The notes under the pieces are model-generated. The model did not search any database. It saw nothing but the letters and a program-made list of their open reading frames with translations, and was not told the origin of the DNA. Below are positions 43,854-50,222 of a stretch of 64,000 bases of DNA, piece by piece (position 1 is the first letter of the stretch; the number at the start of each line of letters is the position of its first letter). This DNA is from Longimicrobiales bacterium (GTDB taxonomy: Bacteria; Gemmatimonadota; Gemmatimonadetes; Longimicrobiales; Gaopeijiaceae): NCBI GenBank assembly GCA_951828585.1, contig OX639991.1, positions 62,001-126,000 of the forward strand. The letters run 5' to 3'. The position numbers were made by a program, and so were the translations under genes.

Positions 43854-45560
43854 ATGCCCACGGCGACCAACGACGAACTCCTCGCGCGCTGGAAGGACAA
43901 GCCCGCCCCCCTCCTCCCCCTCCTCCACGCCCTGCACGAACGCGACGGGTATCTCTCGGAGGAGGCCCTGCGCGCCGTCTCGGCGGGACTCCGCATCCCC
44001 ATCGCCGACCTTTTCGGCACGGTCACCTTCTACCACCACTTCTCGCGGGACGCCGACGGGCTCGACCGGCCCCGCGTCTGCGACGGCCCCGTGTGCGGCA
44101 TGCGGGGCGCCGATGTGCTCATGGCGAGCCTGCGCGCCGCCGGACACGACGTCCAGGCCATGCCCTGCCCCGGCCGCTGCGACCAGCCGGTTCCGGTGAT
44201 ACATCGGGGCACGGTGCTGACCGGACGGACCGCGAGCACGCTGGAGAGCGGGCCTTCGCCTCTGCCACCACCACCGCCTAACGGGTTGGAGGAGTGCGTC
44301 TTCGCGGGGATCCGGCGGTCTGGACGGGCCACGCTCGCGGGGTACCGGAGCCACGGCGGTTACGAGGCGCTGACCCGGGCGGTCAACGGGATGACTTCGG
44401 GCGAGGTGATAGACATGATCGACGCGAGCGGGCTGGCGGGGCGGGGGGGCGCGGGATTCTCGACCGGGCGGAAATGGCGGGCGGTGGCGGAGGCGGCGGG
44501 AGGGCCGAAGACTATCGTCTGCAACGCCGACGAGGGCGAGCCCGGGTGCTTCAAGGACCGCCTGCTGATGGACCACGACCCCCACGGGACGATCGAGGGG
44601 ATGGCGCTGGCGGCGTACGCGGCGGGAGCGGTGCGCGGGTTCATCTACCTGCGCTACGAGTACCCGGAGACCTTCGACATTCTGGAGGGCGCGATCGCCG
44701 AGGCGGAGGCGGCGGGGCTGCTGGGGGACGGGATTCTGGGCACGGACTTCTCCTTCCGCCTGATGGTGCGCCGCGGCGCCGGCGCCTACATATGCGGCGA
44801 GGAGACGTCGCTGCTGAACTCGCTGGAGGGCAAACATCCCTTCCCCCGCAACCGCCCCCCCTTCCCCGTCACGCACGGCTACGAGAACCTGCCCACCGTC
44901 GTGAACAACGTGGAAACCCTCGCCTCCGCGCCCCCGATCATCGTGCACGGCGCGGACTGGTACCAGGGTCTCGGCCGCGGCGACCACGCCGGCACCAAGG
45001 TGATCAGCCTCTCCGGCGACATCGCGCGGCCGGGCAACTACGAAGTCCCCATCGGGCTTCCCCTGCGGGAACTTCTGCACGACTGGGCCGGCGGCCCACC
45101 CCCCGGACGCACCGTCCAGGCCGTCACCATGGCGGGCCTCTCGGGCGGCTTCCTGGCCGGCGCCGACCTGGACGTCACCCTCGACGAGCCCTCCATCCGC
45201 TCGAAGAACAGCTTCCTGGGCGCGGGCGGGATCATGGTCTTTGACGACTCCCGCGACATGATCGCGGTAACCCGCGAGTCGATGGAGTTCTTCGCTGAGG
45301 AGTCGTGTGGGAAGTGCTTCCCCTGCCGCATCGGAACCCAGCGGCTGGTGGAGCGGTTGGAGGGTAGGGGACCTGCAACGGTCGACGCATGGGTGGACGA
45401 AGTGATCGACCTGAACGAGGTCATGAAGAAGACGAGCGCGTGCGGACTGGGCCAGGCAGCCCCCCTGTTGACCGAGAGTCTGATCCGGTACTTTCCCGAC
45501 CGCATTCGGAAACATGTGGCGGACCACGGCGATGGCCGCGGGCCGGCAACGAAAGGCTGA
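43854..45560 (+). CDS. fdhB: NAD-dependent formate dehydrogenase, flavoprotein (beta) subunit
   Basis: A 568-residue fusion of NuoE-like and NuoF-like modules. The N-terminal thioredoxin-like [2Fe-2S] part has C76-x4-C81 and C105-x3-C109. The NuoF part has the FMN/NADH motif GRGGAGFSTGRKW (196-208) and RRGAGAYICGEETSLLNSLEG, and near 484-490 the [4Fe-4S] motif ESCGKCFPCRIGT. It passes electrons from FdhA to NAD+. Such NuoEF fusions with a NuoG-like FdhA are typical of cytoplasmic NAD-dependent enzymes (FdsB relatives). fdhA follows after 5 nt. The gene symbol follows function; fdsB would be equally apt. Confidence 0.93.
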   Translation: MPTATNDELLARWKDKPAPLLPLLHALHERDGYLSEEALRAVSAGLRIPIADLFGTVTFYHHFSRDADGLDRPRVCDGPVCGMRGADVLMASLRAAGHDVQAMPCPGRCDQPVPVIHRGTVLTGRTASTLESGPSPLPPPPPNGLEECVFAGIRRSGRATLAGYRSHGGYEALTRAVNGMTSGEVIDMIDASGLAGRGGAGFSTGRKWRAVAEAAGGPKTIVCNADEGEPGCFKDRLLMDHDPHGTIEGMALAAYAAGAVRGFIYLRYEYPETFDILEGAIAEAEAAGLLGDGILGTDFSFRLMVRRGAGAYICGEETSLLNSLEGKHPFPRNRPPFPVTHGYENLPTVVNNVETLASAPPIIVHGADWYQGLGRGDHAGTKVISLSGDIARPGNYEVPIGLPLRELLHDWAGGPPPGRTVQAVTMAGLSGGFLAGADLDVTLDEPSIRSKNSFLGAGGIMVFDDSRDMIAVTRESMEFFAEESCGKCFPCRIGTQRLVERLEGRGPATVDAWVDEVIDLNEVMKKTSACGLGQAAPLLTESLIRYFPDRIRKHVADHGDGRGPATKG

Positions 45561-45565
45561 CGACG

Positions 45566-48358
45566 ATGAAGCGCAACGGTAGCCCGTCGAAGAACGGCAA
45601 GGGCGTCCGGCTCACCATGACGCTGGACGGGGAGAAGGTCACGTTCACCCGCGGCGAGACGGTCTACGAGGTCGCGGAGCGGAACCGCAAGGAGATTCCG
45701 ACCCTCTGCTACGACCCCCGGCTTGAGCCCTTTGGGGGATGCCGCCTCTGCGTGGTGGAGCTGGAAGGGGCGCGTAACCCGGTGGCGTCGTGCACGATGG
45801 AGGCGCAGCCCGGGATGGAGGTGCGCACCCGCACCGCCGCCCTCGAGGTCCAGCGCCGCATCCTCATGGAGATGGTGGCCTCGGAGAACCGCGACTTGGA
45901 TGTCGACCCCATGCACGGCTACGCGAGCCAGGAGATGGCCGAACTGCTCGACCGCTACGACGCCCGCACGGGCCGCTTCGAGGGCGCGCTTTCGGGCCAC
46001 AGCCGCGACGACGACGACAACCCCTTCATCAAGCGCGACTACGACAACTGCATCTCCTGCTACCGCTGCGTGCGCGTCTGCGCCGAACAGGAGGGCGACT
46101 ACGCGATCTCGATCATGAACCGGGGCTTCGACACGCAGATCACCACCGAGTTCGGCGGACTGCTCAAGGACTCCGCGTGCACCTTCTGTGGGCAGTGCAT
46201 CCAGACGTGTCCAACGGGCGCATTGGGTGACCTCAAGGCGCTGGCCAACCGCGAGGTCCCCGGCGAAACGGAGACCACCCGCACCATCTGCCCGTACTGC
46301 GGCGTGGGCTGCTCGGTCGACGTCATGACGCGCGGCGAGAAGATCATCGGCGTCCTCCCCGCCATGGACGGCCCCGCCAACGAGGGGTCCCTCTGCGTGA
46401 AGGGCCAGTTCGCCTTCGACTTCGTGGGGCATCCGGATCGCCTGGCCACCCCCTTCATCCGCGAAGAGAAATCCGGCCAGCTCCGCCCCGCCTCCTGGGA
46501 CGAGGCGCTGGACTTCGCCGCGGGCAAGCTGAGCAAGGTCGTGAAGGACCACGGCCGCCGCGCCGTCTACGGAATCGCCTCCGGACGCGCGCCCCACGAG
46601 GCCGCCTACATGATGCAGCGCTTCATCCGGGCGGGATTGGGGACGAATCACATCGACAACTGCAGCCGTGCCTGACACGCTCCCACAGTCGCCGGTCTGG
46701 CGGCAACCATCGGTAGAGGCGCCATGTCGAACCCGCTCGCGGACATGGACAAGCCGGATGTGATCTTCTGCATCGGCACCAACATGACCGAATGCCACCC
46801 CGTGGCGGCCACGCGGCTCAAGCGGGCGCTCGCGCGCGGCGCGAAGATGATCGTCGCGGACCCGCGGCGGATCGGGCTGGCCGAGATCGCCGATGTTCAC
46901 CTGCCGATTCGCGTGGGGTCGGACGTGTCGCTTCTGCTGGCAATGGCCCATGTGATCGCGCGCGAGGGGCTGGTGAACCAGGCGTTCATCGACGAGCGCA
47001 CGGCCCACGGCGAAGACTTCCTGAAGCATGTCGAGCCCTACACCCCCGAGTGGGCATCCGAGATCTGCGAGTGCGACCCCGGGGACATCGAGAAGGCCGC
47101 GCTGCTCTACGGCGTGGCCGACCGGGGCGCCATCTACTACACGGTGGGGATCACCGAGCACATCTGCGGCGTCGACAACGTCCAGAGCCTCTGCAACCTG
47201 GCGCTTATGACCGGCAACCTGGGCCGCGAGGGAACGGGCGTGAACCCCATGCGCGGCCAGAACAACATCCAGGGGGCGGGCGATGCGGGCGCGCTCCCGA
47301 ACAACTATCCCGGCTTCCAGAAGGTGATCGAACCCGCCCACCAGGAGAAGTTCCACAAGGCCTACGGACGCAAGGTCGACCTCGAGACGGGGATGACCAA
47401 GGTGACCGCTCTGGACCTCTGCGGCGACGGAATCCACGCCATGATGATCAACGGCGAGAACACCCTGGTCACCGACCCGGACCGACACCACTGCGAGCAC
47501 GCGCTGAAGAGCCTCGACTGCCTGGTGGTGATCGACATCTTCATGACCGAGACGGCCAAGGTGGCCGACGTGGTCTTCCCGGCTACGGCGTGGGCCGAGA
47601 CCGACGGTGTCTGCACCAACACCGAGCGGCGCGTCCAGCGCCTGCGCGCGGCGGTCCCGCCACCGGGCGACGCGAAGCCGGACTGGTGGATCGTGTCGCG
47701 GCTCGCTCAGCGAATGGGCTGGAAGGGCTTTGAGTTCGAGTCGGCCAAGGAGGTCTTCAACGAGCTGTGTTCCCTGTCACCCATTTACGCGGGACTGGAC
47801 TGGGACCGGATCGACCGGGGCGAGTACCAGTGGCCCGTGCCGGAAGAAGGGCACCCGGGGACGCCGCGGCTGCACGAGGAGCGCTTCGAGAACGGCCGCG
47901 GGATCTTCAAGATGCTCAAGTACCGGGATCCCGAAGAGACGCTGTCGGACGAGTATCCGATGTGGCTCACGACCGGGCGCCGGCTGCCGCAGTACCATAC
48001 GCGGACGCAGACGGGGCGGTCGGACGGGATCGACTACCTGCTCTCGGAGGAGACGCTCGAGGTGCACCCGGAGGATATCGTGCGGCTGGGGCTGGAGGAC
48101 GGGGGGTGGGCAGAGATGAGCAACCCGCGCGGGTGCCTGCACGTGAAGGTGCGGGCGACGACGAAATCGCCGAAGGGGACCGTTTTTGCTTCGTTCGCGT
48201 TTGAGGATGTTCCGGTGAATGTGTTGACGGGGGGAGGGTATGATCCGGTGACGCAGACGGCGGCGTTGAAGGCTTGTCCGGTGGCGTTGAAGGCGGTGGG
48301 GGCGCCGCCGGCGGTGGGGGGGGCGGGGGGGCCTTTGGTGGGGCTCGGGCGGGTGTAG
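45566..48358 (+). CDS. fdhA: Selenocysteine-containing formate dehydrogenase, alpha subunit
   Basis: A 930-residue molybdo/tungsto-enzyme that oxidises formate to CO2. Clusters in order: [2Fe-2S] C48, C59, C62, C76; 2x[4Fe-4S] C162/165/168/172 and C205/208/211/215; the MopB [4Fe-4S] C242/245/249/277. Codon 370 is TGA (46673-46675) in NHIDNCSRA-U-HAPTVAGLA, exactly where family members have Cys or Sec followed by the conserved His; the same frame continues through TIGRGAMSNPLADMDKPD to 48358. A SECIS-like hairpin follows the UGA. Read without recoding, the gene appears as two ORFs (45566-46675 and 46724-48358). Ends in a Gly/Ala/Pro-rich tail. Forms an operon with fdhB. Confidence 0.93.
46676..46712 (+). 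promoter_or_regulatory. Bacterial SECIS element for UGA recoding in fdhA
   Basis: Just after UGA 46673-46675, bases 46688-46693 (GTCGCC) pair with 46699-46704 (GGCGGC) as a 6-bp stem including one U-G, closing a five-base loop GGTCT (46694-46698). The loop sequence and its distance of 18 nt from the UGA equal those of the E. coli fdhF SECIS bound by SelB. The element lies within the coding sequence and encodes TVAGLAA. Confidence 0.85.
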
Positions 48359-48361
48359 CCA

Positions 48362-49576
48362 ATGGCGGAGGACAGGCGGCTGCTGAGGCGGGTGGTCCTG
48401 CGCAACTACAAGAGCATCGCGGCGTGCGACGTGTCGCCAGCTCAGTTGACTTTCCTGGTTGGCTCCAACGGTTCGGGAAAGAGCAACTTTCTCGACGCAC
48501 TCAGGTTCCTGTCCGACTCGCTCAGGCACTCGCTGGATCATGCGCTGCGCGACCGGGGCGGGATCAACGAGGTCAGGCGACGGTCCAGCGGCCACCCCAC
48601 GCACTTCGGCATGCGAGTGGAGTTCGACGTCGGCATGGCCACGGGCCACTACGCCTTCACGGTGTCCGCCAAGCAGGGGGGCAGCTACGGGCTCAAGGAA
48701 GAGGAGTGCGTGGTTCTGCCGAAGGATGACGGCCCGGCGCAGTACTACCGGGTGTCTTCAGGGAAGGTCAGGAGCAGCGTTTCGACCTTCCCTGCGGTTT
48801 CACCCCGTCGGCTGGCCCTTGTGAGCGCGTCAGGACTGCCTGCGTTCCGCCCGGTCTACGACGCATTCTCACGAGCCGGATTCTACAACCTGAACCCCGC
48901 CGCCATCCGGACCATGCAGTCGCCCGACCCCGGCGACCTCATGAATCGCGACGGCAGCAACGTCGCAAGCGTACTGGACCGAATCGCGCAGCGGTCTCCG
49001 GAAGCGAAGAAGATGATCGAGGAGTACCTGGGGAAGGTCGTTCCCGGCATCACCGGAGTGGATCGGAAGGCCGTTGGCCCTGTCGAGACTCTGGAGTTTC
49101 GGCAGCGTGTCACCGGGGCGCAGCACCCATGGCGCTTCTACGCCAGCAGCATGTCCGATGGCACGCTGCGGACCGTCGGTTTGCTTGTGGCCCTATTTCA
49201 GACGAACGGTAGCCGTATCAGCGGGCGGTCGCTTGTCGGAGTCGAGGAACCGGAGGTGGCGCTCCACCCGGCCGCTGCGGGGATTCTTGTGGACGCCCTG
49301 AGCGACGCAGCAGAAGTGAGGCAGATCCTCGTGACAAGTCACAGCGCCGACCTGTTGGACGAAGAGGACATCGGCGGCGTTTCCGTGCTGGCCGTCGTGT
49401 CCGACGACGGAATCACGCGGATCGGGCCGCTGGACGAGGTAGGGGCATCCGTCCTCAGGGACCACCTGTACACCGCGGGCGAACTGTTGAGAATGGACAA
49501 GCTGGAGCCGGACTCAAGCCTTTCCAGGCCAAGAATCCGCCAGAGCGATCTCTTTGGCCGCCGCAACGGCCCGTAA
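48362..49576 (+). CDS. AAA family (AAA_21/OLD-like) ATPase
   Basis: A 404-residue ABC/SMC-type ATPase. It opens with VVLRNYKSIAACDVSPAQLTFLVG and Walker A GSNGSGKSN (34-42), a helical insertion (about 70-230), the signature-like SSMSDGTLRTVGLLVAL, Walker B RSLVGVEEPEVALHPAAAG and the switch His in LVTSHSADLLDEED. This is the RecF/OLD-type AAA_21 class. The stop TAA overlaps the ATG of the DUF4276 gene (TAATG). ATPase + DUF4276 pairs resemble OLD nucleases split into two polypeptides and are thought to act in phage or plasmid defence. It starts 4 nt after fdhA but has no evident link to formate. Confidence 0.85.
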   Translation: MAEDRRLLRRVVLRNYKSIAACDVSPAQLTFLVGSNGSGKSNFLDALRFLSDSLRHSLDHALRDRGGINEVRRRSSGHPTHFGMRVEFDVGMATGHYAFTVSAKQGGSYGLKEEECVVLPKDDGPAQYYRVSSGKVRSSVSTFPAVSPRRLALVSASGLPAFRPVYDAFSRAGFYNLNPAAIRTMQSPDPGDLMNRDGSNVASVLDRIAQRSPEAKKMIEEYLGKVVPGITGVDRKAVGPVETLEFRQRVTGAQHPWRFYASSMSDGTLRTVGLLVALFQTNGSRISGRSLVGVEEPEVALHPAAAGILVDALSDAAEVRQILVTSHSADLLDEEDIGGVSVLAVVSDDGITRIGPLDEVGASVLRDHLYTAGELLRMDKLEPDSSLSRPRIRQSDLFGRRNGP

Positions 49577-50160
49577 TGAAGACGGTGGCCGTCGTTGTGG
49601 AGGGTCACGGCGAAGTCCAGGCAGTACCCGTGCTGGTGCGCAGGATCGCAGCGGAGTTGGGCCACGGGGTGAAGGTGCCGAGACCTGTGCGCATCAGGCG
49701 CAACCGGGTGGACCGGGCTGGTGAGTTTGAGAAAGCGGTGGAGCTCGCATCCCGCGACGCAGGCGAAGAAGGATCGATCCTGGTTCTGCTGGACGCCGAC
49801 AGGGATTGTCCCGCGCAGTTGGCCTCGGCGCTTGCAAGCCGTGCCGAAGCGGTCCGACCGGATGGCATGATTCGCGTCGTGCTCGCCAAGGCGGAATTCG
49901 AGTCCTGGTTCCTCGCGGCGGCCGCGTCGATCGGTGGGCGACGTGGCATCTCAGGGTCCGTTGCGTCTCCTGCGGATCCCGAGGCGATCCGCGATGCCAA
50001 GGGGGTTCTCAGCTCCTGGATGCCCAGCAACAGGTCGTACCGGCCCAGCCGGGACCAGGCGGCGCTGGCAGCCGTCTTCGATCTTCGCGCTGCTCGCTCG
50101 GCTCCTTCCTTCGACAAGCTGTGGCGGGACGTCAAGGCGTTGCTGGAGGCCGCACGGTGA
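49576..50160 (+). CDS. DUF4276 family TOPRIM-like protein, partner of the ATPase
   Basis: A 194-residue protein with the DUF4276 pattern: VVVEGHGEVQAVPVLVRRI near the N-terminus (E9, E13), LVLLDADRDCP (D73, D75), and AKAEFESWFLAAA. These acidic positions match a TOPRIM metal-binding fold as in OLD-family nucleases. The C-terminal part (SSWMPSNRSYRPSRDQAALAAVFDL, then SFDKLWRDVKALL) follows the usual family layout. It is translationally coupled to the upstream AAA ATPase by TAATG. Probably a metal-dependent nuclease subunit; this is inferred from family and pairing. Confidence 0.82.
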   Translation: MKTVAVVVEGHGEVQAVPVLVRRIAAELGHGVKVPRPVRIRRNRVDRAGEFEKAVELASRDAGEEGSILVLLDADRDCPAQLASALASRAEAVRPDGMIRVVLAKAEFESWFLAAAASIGGRRGISGSVASPADPEAIRDAKGVLSSWMPSNRSYRPSRDQAALAAVFDLRAARSAPSFDKLWRDVKALLEAAR

Positions 50161-50222
50161 GCCACTACACCAAGGTCGAGGCCCACCTCGCCCACACCGC
50201 GATTCACCCCGAGTTTATTTGA
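50157..50222 (+). CDS. Possible truncated third ORF of the ATPase operon
   Basis: A GTG at 50157 forms GTGA with the DUF4276 stop, the standard coupling in this genome, and opens a frame of only 21 residues (MSHYTKVEAHLAHTAIHPEF, then Ile) before TGA. The MSHYTKV opening is reminiscent of DUF1257-type N-termini (MSHFTKI/V), but too little remains. It may be the stump of a third gene or chance. Confidence 0.25.
   Translation: MSHYTKVEAHLAHTAIHPEFI

What the first reader, a model, noticed from the sequence alone, without database searches (positions are those of the whole stretch)
48362..50222. Two-gene AAA ATPase + DUF4276 module, possible split OLD-type defence system
Seen: an SMC/AAA_21 ATPase overlaps (TAATG) a small protein with acidic TOPRIM-like positions E9, E13, D73, D75. 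Established: OLD nucleases fuse the same two activities. Inference: this is a split nuclease. A third GTGA-coupled start (MSHYTKVEA) after DUF4276 opens only 21 codons, hinting at a lost third gene. The module follows fdhA by 4 nt, an unusual place for a defence cassette.
Basis: partly seen in the sequence, partly recalled or inferred. Interest (0 to 1): 0.6.

Follow-up and report, generated by a model that had tools for sequence, protein, structure and literature searches.

The report
Stand-alone two-gene phage-defence pair
Behind a formate dehydrogenase gene in a Gemmatimonadota bacterium sits a small two-gene module, an ATPase that probably senses infection and a probable nuclease that probably acts on it; it belongs to a kind already listed as candidate phage defence, and its odd location is a spot where cargo genes come and go.

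Summary
In detail: an SMC-like ABC ATPase (A, 48362-49576) overlaps a DUF4276 protein (B, 49576-50160). Both match PADLOC's candidate system HEC-01 over full length (A E=3.6e-155, B E=2.3e-70). B's homologues lie directly behind an A homologue in 39 of 39 genome-contig loci; 17 of 39 carry DISARM, type I restriction, Hma or HEC-03 genes, against 0 of 21 control stretches. B's model (pLDDT 95.8) matches OLD TOPRIM domains best (Z 9.0, 8.8, 8.8, 8.1), and its conserved E9, E13, D73, D75, E107, E109, K142 fit the OLD two-metal site. So 'split OLD-like nuclease module' is supported; the nearest tested analogue is PARIS, but B is not AriB (DUF4435). The 'lost third gene' is not supported: the 21-codon ORF runs across the cargo border. 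The odd place is explained: among 19 genus relatives the spot behind fdhA is intact pair (5), pair remnants (3), other cargo (3) or empty (8). Most likely mechanism, inferred: A holds B inactive and releases it on infection; B cleaves nucleic acid, causing abortive infection. New member of a known kind.

The parts
48362..49576 (+). gene A: ABC/SMC-type ATPase, HEC-01A family, 404 aa; probable infection sensor and regulator
   Evidence: PADLOC PDLC04178 HEC-01A E=3.6e-155 over 4-399; Pfam AAA_21 E=1e-26; model pLDDT 90.9 matching SMC/Rad50 heads and PtuA, Z 19.5-22.5
48461..48484 (+). Walker A of A (codons 34-41, GSNGSGKS)
   Evidence: G34, G39, K40, S41 in 46 of 46 aligned sequences
49154..49171 (+). 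ABC signature-like motif of A (codons 265-270, SDGTLR)
   Evidence: S265, G267, T268, R270 in 46 of 46; D266 44 D and 2 E; motif name recalled
49232..49255 (+). Walker B region of A (codons 291-298, ending EEPE)
   Evidence: E295, E296, E298 in 46 of 46
49576..50160 (+). gene B: DUF4276 / HEC-01B, 194 aa; probable TOPRIM-type nuclease effector
   Evidence: PADLOC PDLC04196 HEC-01B E=2.3e-70; Pfam DUF4276 E=3e-12; model pLDDT 95.8; best VIA matches are OLD TOPRIM regions, Z 9.0/8.8/8.8/8.1
49597..49614 (+). B codons 8-13 VEGHGE: E9 and E13 (counterparts of Bp OLD E400, E404)
   Evidence: V8, E9, G10, G12 42 of 42; E13 40 of 42; profile alignment puts E9 on the OLD TOPRIM glutamate
49792..49800 (+). 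B codons 73-75 DAD (counterpart of the TOPRIM DxD)
   Evidence: D73 41 of 42, D75 33 of 42; aligned to the OLD DxD
49894..49902 (+). B codons 107-109 EFE; E107/E109, proposed metal-B ligands (compare Bp OLD T506, E508)
   Evidence: both 42 of 42; the correspondence is inference from order and spacing
49999..50001 (+). B codon 142, K142; proposed counterpart of the catalytic lysine Bp OLD K562
   Evidence: 42 of 42; the correspondence is inference
50157..50222 (+). 21-codon GTG ORF: judged not a gene; it crosses the cargo/site junction
   Evidence: no equivalent in four intact genus relatives; shared site sequence resumes at about 50183-50200
50183..50200 (.). approximate right border of the module at the fdhA site
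   Evidence: G152, without the pair, matches the window again from 50197 (86% over 237 bp); G052 from 50200, G151 from 50183
48356..48361 (.). left border: fdhA stop codon and 3-base gap
   Evidence: in G152 fdhA is followed by VAEDRRLLRRVVLRNY, the first 16 codons of A, before other cargo
45389..48358 (+). host gene fdhA (formate dehydrogenase alpha, with in-frame TGA at 46673-46675), context only

Best explanation
A and B form a stand-alone HEC-01-type defence module that works like a split OLD nuclease. Shown by computation: A is an SMC/Rad50-head-type ABC ATPase with intact Walker A, signature-like and Walker B motifs; B has a TOPRIM-like fold with a conserved acidic set matching the OLD two-metal site; the pair is a conserved unit, is under purifying selection, and across many phyla often lies within or beside DISARM, type I restriction or Hma genes. 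Inferred, by analogy with PARIS: A assembles and holds B inactive; a phage product or damage signal triggers A with ATP; B is freed or switched on and, with two metal ions, cuts nucleic acid needed by the cell (tRNA as in PARIS, or DNA as in OLD/Gabija), stopping the infection at the cost of the cell. The fdhA neighbourhood is only a tolerated insertion site, perhaps with read-through expression, not a functional partner.
For: HEC-01A and HEC-01B are the best PADLOC families over full length. A lies upstream of B in 39 of 39 loci; gap -4 to +8 nt in 31 of the 35 with both ORFs readable. Defence genes within the flanks in 17 of 39 loci and 0 of 21 control stretches (family names); a gene of the DrmA cluster is next downstream in 7 of 39, and HmaB overlaps B by ATGA in L045. 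B model pLDDT 95.8; four OLD TOPRIM entries rank 1, 2, 3 and 6 with 162-169 residues aligned, while the other 46 listed rows align at most 138, that one being Ts OLD. Profile-profile E=4.5e-4 against 15 OLD TOPRIMs, 29 control families no better than 0.038. Invariant residues follow the OLD site: E400/D455/D457, E404/T506/E508, K562 (passages of PMC6755086). dN/dS 0.06-0.17 for A where computable, 0.13-0.22 for B. PARIS mechanism: PMC12409363, section 1 Introduction.
Against: No antiviral activity has been measured for this copy, and I found no test of HEC-01 itself. Foldseek found no PDB match at E<=0.001 for B, and VIA Z of 8-9 is only a little above the usual background of 7-8. D75 is not invariant (33/42). 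22 of 39 loci show none of the defence genes I searched for. PDB has no relative of B by sequence. Oligomerisation, trigger and substrate are untested.
Confidence: 0.7

Rival explanations
1. The pair is a DNA-targeting restriction-type nuclease (like OLD/Gabija) that attacks invader DNA directly, often serving as an extra nuclease of methylation-based systems, rather than an abortive tRNase.
For: Closest solved folds to B are DNA-cutting OLD TOPRIM regions; homologues sit beside DISARM, type I restriction and Hma genes, which include DNA methylases; passages of PMC12839542 describe TOPRIM/OLD nucleases recruited to BREX loci.
Against: A two-gene arrangement resembles PARIS, whose separate TOPRIM protein is a tRNase (PMC12409363). 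This copy has no methylase next to it and its genome shows no DrmA match, so there is no evident self/non-self mark.
Confidence: 0.3
2. The pair is functionally tied to formate dehydrogenase (maturation or regulation) because it follows fdhA in the same direction.
For: Three-base gap behind fdhA; same position in five genus genomes.
Against: Of 19 genus genomes readable past fdhA, 14 lack an intact pair there. FdhA lies near the pair in only 3 of 39 loci, two of them same-genus. Synonymous divergence of the pair (1.3-2.6 for most pairs) far exceeds that of fdhA and fhs (0.28-0.58), so it does not share their history.
Confidence: 0.03
3. The pair is a toxin-antitoxin-like selfish or decaying element without a present defence role.
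For: Repeated decay at the site: A remnants in G233 and G152, a weak B-tail remnant in G299; B lacking its N-terminal 35 residues with A largely kept in G063 C55.
Against: This copy is intact with all conserved residues; dN/dS well below 1; association with defence genes elsewhere.
Confidence: 0.1

Closest known systems
HEC-01 (PADLOC 'Hma-embedded candidate' 1, HEC-01A/HEC-01B)
   Same: both proteins match its profiles over full length and far better than any other family; same gene order and coupling; HmaB lies directly behind a homologue (L045)
   Different: this copy is not embedded in another defence system but stands alone behind fdhA; its genome shows no DrmA match
PARIS (AriA + AriB)
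   Same: [quoted passage not shown] the likely working analogue (PMC12409363 sections, PMC10568477 passages)
   Different: B is DUF4276, not DUF4435/AriB; no AriB model among the 13 PADLOC families matched by B at E<=1. AriA is matched only through broad ATPase models
OLD proteins (classes 1-3, including Gabija GajA and retron-Eco8 effector)
   Same: TOPRIM fold and metal-site pattern of B; ABC ATPase with similar motifs
   Different: OLDs are one polypeptide; here ATPase and TOPRIM are separate genes, with no GajB-like helicase or reverse transcriptase next to them
RloB (PF13707)
   Same: by eye, a shared F-E-x-W-L motif following the acidic pair (RloB sequences)
   Different: profile comparison with only three RloB sequences is weak (E=0.029), hardly better than the best control (0.038)
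Septu / retron PtuA-PtuB
   Same: A's fold is close to PtuA (Foldseek E about 1e-14; VIA Z about 20-21), another ATPase with a separate nuclease partner
   Different: partner here is TOPRIM-like, not HNH PtuB

Membership tests
HEC-01 (PADLOC candidate system) | HEC-01A ATPase profile match | tested here: met
   PDLC04178 E=3.6e-155, residues 4-399 on profile 5-395/399
HEC-01 (PADLOC candidate system) | HEC-01B (DUF4276) profile match | tested here: met
   PDLC04196 E=2.3e-70, residues 1-191 on profile 1-193/197
HEC-01 (PADLOC candidate system) | the two genes adjacent on one strand | tested here: met
   TAATG overlap
HEC-01 (PADLOC candidate system) | antiviral activity | not testable with these tools
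   PMC12988326 passage says several HECs including HEC-06 were active; HEC-01 is not named there
TOPRIM nucleases of the OLD type | TOPRIM acidic set: glutamate after strand 1 and DxD | tested here: met
   E9 42/42, D73 41/42, D75 33/42; aligned to OLD residues
TOPRIM nucleases of the OLD type | TOPRIM fold | tested here: met
   four OLD TOPRIM entries rank 1, 2, 3 and 6, Z 9.0 to 8.1, 162-169 aligned of 194, rmsd 4.4-4.5; margin over background is modest and Foldseek alone gave nothing at E<=0.001
TOPRIM nucleases of the OLD type | metal-dependent nuclease activity | not testable with these tools
   needs purified protein
OLD protein (classes 1-3) | ATPase and TOPRIM in one polypeptide | tested here: not met
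   two ORFs in different frames
PARIS | AriB effector (DUF4435) | tested here: not met
   no AriB or DUF4435 match for B at E<=1 in PADLOC or Pfam
PARIS | ABC ATPase AriA | tested here: inconclusive
   AriA models match A at E=3.6e-27 (same span as Pfam AAA_21) and 1.2e-17, far below HEC-01A
Gabija | GajB UvrD-like helicase next to the OLD gene | tested here: not met
   next genes are propeller proteins on the other strand
Septu | HNH nuclease PtuB | tested here: not met
   only DUF4276 found in B

The most novel reading that the evidence does not exclude
HEC-01 is a portable guard of methylation-based immunity: inside DISARM, type I restriction and Hma operons it watches for phage proteins that disable restriction and then kills the cell through its TOPRIM nuclease, as PARIS does on sensing Ocr. 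The copy here is a free-standing descendant that keeps the sensor-effector pair and guards the cell alone from a swap site behind fdhA.
Probability: 0.2. Interest if true: 0.65.

Novelty: new member of a known kind. Interest (0 to 1): 0.35.

Why it matters
DUF4276 is still named a domain of unknown function. The evidence here gives it a concrete, testable active site (E9, E13, D73, D75, E107, E109, K142) and a PARIS-like working model, and shows the module recurring inside DISARM, type I restriction and Hma loci as well as alone. It also shows that a spot behind a core metabolic gene can act as a small turnover site for defence-type cargo. If confirmed it would add a second split ATPase-TOPRIM system beside PARIS.

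Tried and rejected
Lost third gene: rejected. The peptide finds nothing better than E=0.5 outside this genome's own loci, its 3' part is site sequence shared with G151, G152 and G052, and no gene family other than A and B recurs across the diverse loci as an adjacent partner: next come lineage-specific propellers and the DISARM DrmA cluster, 9 loci each.

FDH partnership: rejected. Mobile-element carriage: B has 0 relatives in viral contigs, 1 phage record at 35% and 3 Streptomyces plasmid records at 35-39%, so phages and plasmids are not its usual home in these collections. A repeat at the right border: the border sequence occurs once in the genome and once in the window.

DUF4276 has 0 hits in the held paper library. 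HEC-01 as a defence term appears in one of the 5 papers listed, a bare mention in a Desulfovibrio piger paper (PMC12724379 passage). Further paper searches. The source preprint of HEC (Payne et al. 2024, seen only as a reference-list entry in PMC12988326) and the ABC-ATPase survey cited as reference 52 of PMC12839542 were not read, so 'untested' means only that I found no test. One search was badly framed (one term matched inside a drug name) and gave nothing. One search covered a wrong family accession and is irrelevant. One search found helicase, DNA methylase, RhuM/Fic and HATPase domains in 4 of 9 cargo proteins of related sites, and nothing in 5; 9 of 10 further neighbours gave no PADLOC family at 1e-15, one gave a broad ATPase hit; 5 of 10 gave a family (HmaB, HEC-03B, LmuB, MkoA/MkoC partial, PrimPol) and 5 none. 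The radC match is far below its cut-off. DUF4435 gave 2 of 121 phylum genomes, both under the cut-off, so no AriB set could be built for a profile comparison.

Dropped or uneven rows: alignment A1 uses 42 B sequences and A2 46 A sequences, leaving out broken or near-duplicate copies; structure jobs used 35 and 36. G300 (fdhA cut by contig end) and G192, G173, G197 (no close fdhA match) are not among the 19 site genomes. My gene calls come from a simple codon-bias script and miss genes in low-GC loci such as L036; several broken ORFs in MAG contigs may be assembly errors. The defence probes were themselves taken from loci in the counted sets, and L072 stands in both the 13 extra stretches and the 21 controls (no hit). 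For 3 of 10 A pairs dS could not be computed, and dS above 1 is saturated.

Full report
WHAT IS THERE. Gene A (48362-49576, 404 aa) and gene B (49576-50160, 194 aa) overlap as TAATG, 3 bases behind the stop of fdhA. A is AAA_21 (E=1e-26) and B is DUF4276 (E=3e-12) in Pfam. In PADLOC-DB both are best matched, over full length, by one candidate system: HEC-01A E=3.6e-155 and HEC-01B E=2.3e-70.

THE PAIR IS A UNIT. Searching genome contigs with B alone gave 39 loci, in records titled as Gemmatimonadetes, Acidobacteria and Vicinamibacteria, Planctomycetota, Proteobacteria, Actinomycetes and Streptomyces, Chloroflexi and Anaerolineae, Elusimicrobia and others. All 39 have an A homologue directly upstream on the same strand (in L045 and L050 it is cut by the contig end, in L028 and L059 B is broken). 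In the 35 with both ORFs readable the gap is -4 to +8 nt in 31. No third gene family recurs as a partner. In the phylum B-like sequence is found in 14 of 298 genomes.

A IS AN ABC ATPase, B A TOPRIM-LIKE PROTEIN. A's model (pLDDT 90.9) matches SMC/Rad50 heads and PtuA (Foldseek E about 1e-14; the 50 rows listed have VIA Z 19.5-22.5). Walker A, signature-like and Walker B residues checked are conserved in 46 of 46 sequences, apart from D266 (44 D, 2 E). B's model (pLDDT 95.8, 35 sequences) has the order strand, helix, helix, strand, helix, strand, then a helical tail. Foldseek gave no significant PDB match (best E 0.033; PARIS entry 8ux9 rank 16, E 0.11). Re-alignment of Foldseek's top chains ranks OLD TOPRIM regions 1, 2, 3 and 6: 6nk8 Z 9.0 (169 aligned, rmsd 4.5), 6njv 8.8, 6njw 8.8, 6njx 8.1. 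Unrelated folds begin at Z 8.1 but align at most 134 residues; Ts OLD (6p74) is at 6.5 with 138. Independently, a profile comparison of 42 B sequences with 15 OLD TOPRIMs from the same phylum gives E=4.5e-4 and places E9 and the DAD motif on the OLD glutamate and DxD; 29 control families gave E of 0.038 or worse; three RloB sequences gave 0.029.

THE ACTIVE SITE. In Bp OLD metal A is held by E400, D455, D457, metal B by E404, T506, E508, with K562 helping catalysis (passages of PMC6755086); Ts OLD has E377, D431, D433 / D381, S478, E480 / R487 (passages of PMC7049728). B conserves E9 (42/42), E13 (40/42), D73 (41/42), D75 (33/42), E107 and E109 (42/42), K142 (42/42): the same order, and the same spacing within each motif (9/13 and 400/404; 73/75 and 455/457; 107/109 and 506/508). 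The first four correspondences rest on profile and structure alignment; those of E107, E109 and K142 are inference.

DEFENCE CONTEXT OF RELATIVES. PADLOC names neighbours as DrmA, DrmB, DrmC, DrmD, DrmMI, type I MTase, specificity and REase subunits (9 of 10 proteins tested), and HmaB, HEC-03B and others (5 of 10), with 1 of 10 in a third set. In L027, L032 and L033 the pair lies between DrmMI-like and DrmA-like genes, and a gene of the DrmA cluster follows B directly in 7 of 39; G160 shows DrmD, DrmMI, one more gene, A, a broken B, DrmA, DrmB in a row and G292 A, B, DrmA, DrmB, DrmC. This matches the way the HECs were found ('Hma-embedded', passages of PMC12988326) and the recruitment of OLD-ABC/TOPRIM modules to BREX loci described in PMC12839542 (passages).

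WHY BEHIND fdhA. A close fdhA match (E=0) is present in 20 of 23 genus genomes; 19 can be read past its end. Five carry the intact pair (own, G060, G063, G151, G052). Three carry remnants: G152 keeps A's first 16 codons (VAEDRRLLRRVVLRNY), G233 pieces of A, G299 a weak B tail. Three carry other cargo (G239, G097, G138), and eight have only a short spacer before a propeller, ADP-ribosylglycohydrolase or fhs gene. Cargo in related sites includes helicase, DNA methylase and RhuM/Fic domains (4 of 9 proteins with a Pfam match). Synonymous divergence of A and B from relatives is mostly 1.3-2.6 (saturated) against 0.28-0.58 for fdhA and fhs, except G060-G063, where the pair (0.28, 0.39) is closer than fhs (0.52). 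dN/dS is 0.06-0.17 for A (7 of 10 pairs computable) and 0.13-0.22 for B. GC3 is 0.81 and 0.76 against 0.90 and 0.92. So the pair looks functional and exchanged among lineages at a fixed spot, not co-evolving with formate metabolism.

THE THIRD ORF. It exists (50157-50222), but G152, which lacks the pair, matches the window again from 50197 (86% over 237 bp), and G151 and G052 from 50183 and 50200. The ORF therefore runs from cargo into site sequence and is a chance frame.

HOW IT LIKELY WORKS. PARIS is the best-tested analogue: AriA hexamers hold AriB until a trigger such as Ocr frees it to cut tRNA (PMC12409363, Introduction; two-metal cleavage, section on mechanism). PMC10568477 (passages) notes PARIS as a proposed class 4 OLD with separate genes. 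The present pair has the same division of labour with a different TOPRIM family. Whether its substrate is tRNA or DNA is open.

VERDICT. The finding is sound and largely correctly read, but it is a member of an already listed candidate family; what is added is the active-site assignment, the embedding in DISARM and type I loci seen from this subfamily, and the turnover site.

Noticed in passing
window 45389-48358, TGA at 46673-46675: fdhA is a probable selenoprotein: in-frame TGA in ...NCSRA-U-HAPTVAGL..., an Rfam SECIS_3 match just there (E=2.4e-5, below its gathering score), and a SelB over its cut-off in the genome (318 bits). Simple MFE folding of 50 nt was not better than shuffles.
   Followed up: partly
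own genome C1:888685, 628796, 3588481 (L017, L018, L020): Three further DUF4276 genes, each next to a distant relative of A at 24-29% identity; the one at 628796 has an in-frame TGA.
   Followed up: partly
L074 (own genome C1:3579001-3599000): The DUF4276 pair at 3588481 lies near two near-identical transposase-like gene pairs.
   Followed up: no
interval between fdhA and fhs in genus genomes, e.g. L105, L108, L112, L115, L117: A variable site with other cargo: a conserved 100-aa protein of no Pfam family, a 156-aa protein, helicase fragments, DNA methylase, RhuM/Fic.
   Followed up: partly
L071 / L028 (G063 C55): B lacks its first 35 residues (so E9 and E13) while A is largely kept; on this contig the NuoEF-like and FdhA N-terminal parts are only 70-73% identical although the FdhA C-terminal part is 91%: mosaic or mixed assembly.
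   Followed up: no
L027, L032, L033, L066, L069: HEC-01 pairs embedded inside DISARM operons just before DrmA, in several phyla.
   Followed up: partly
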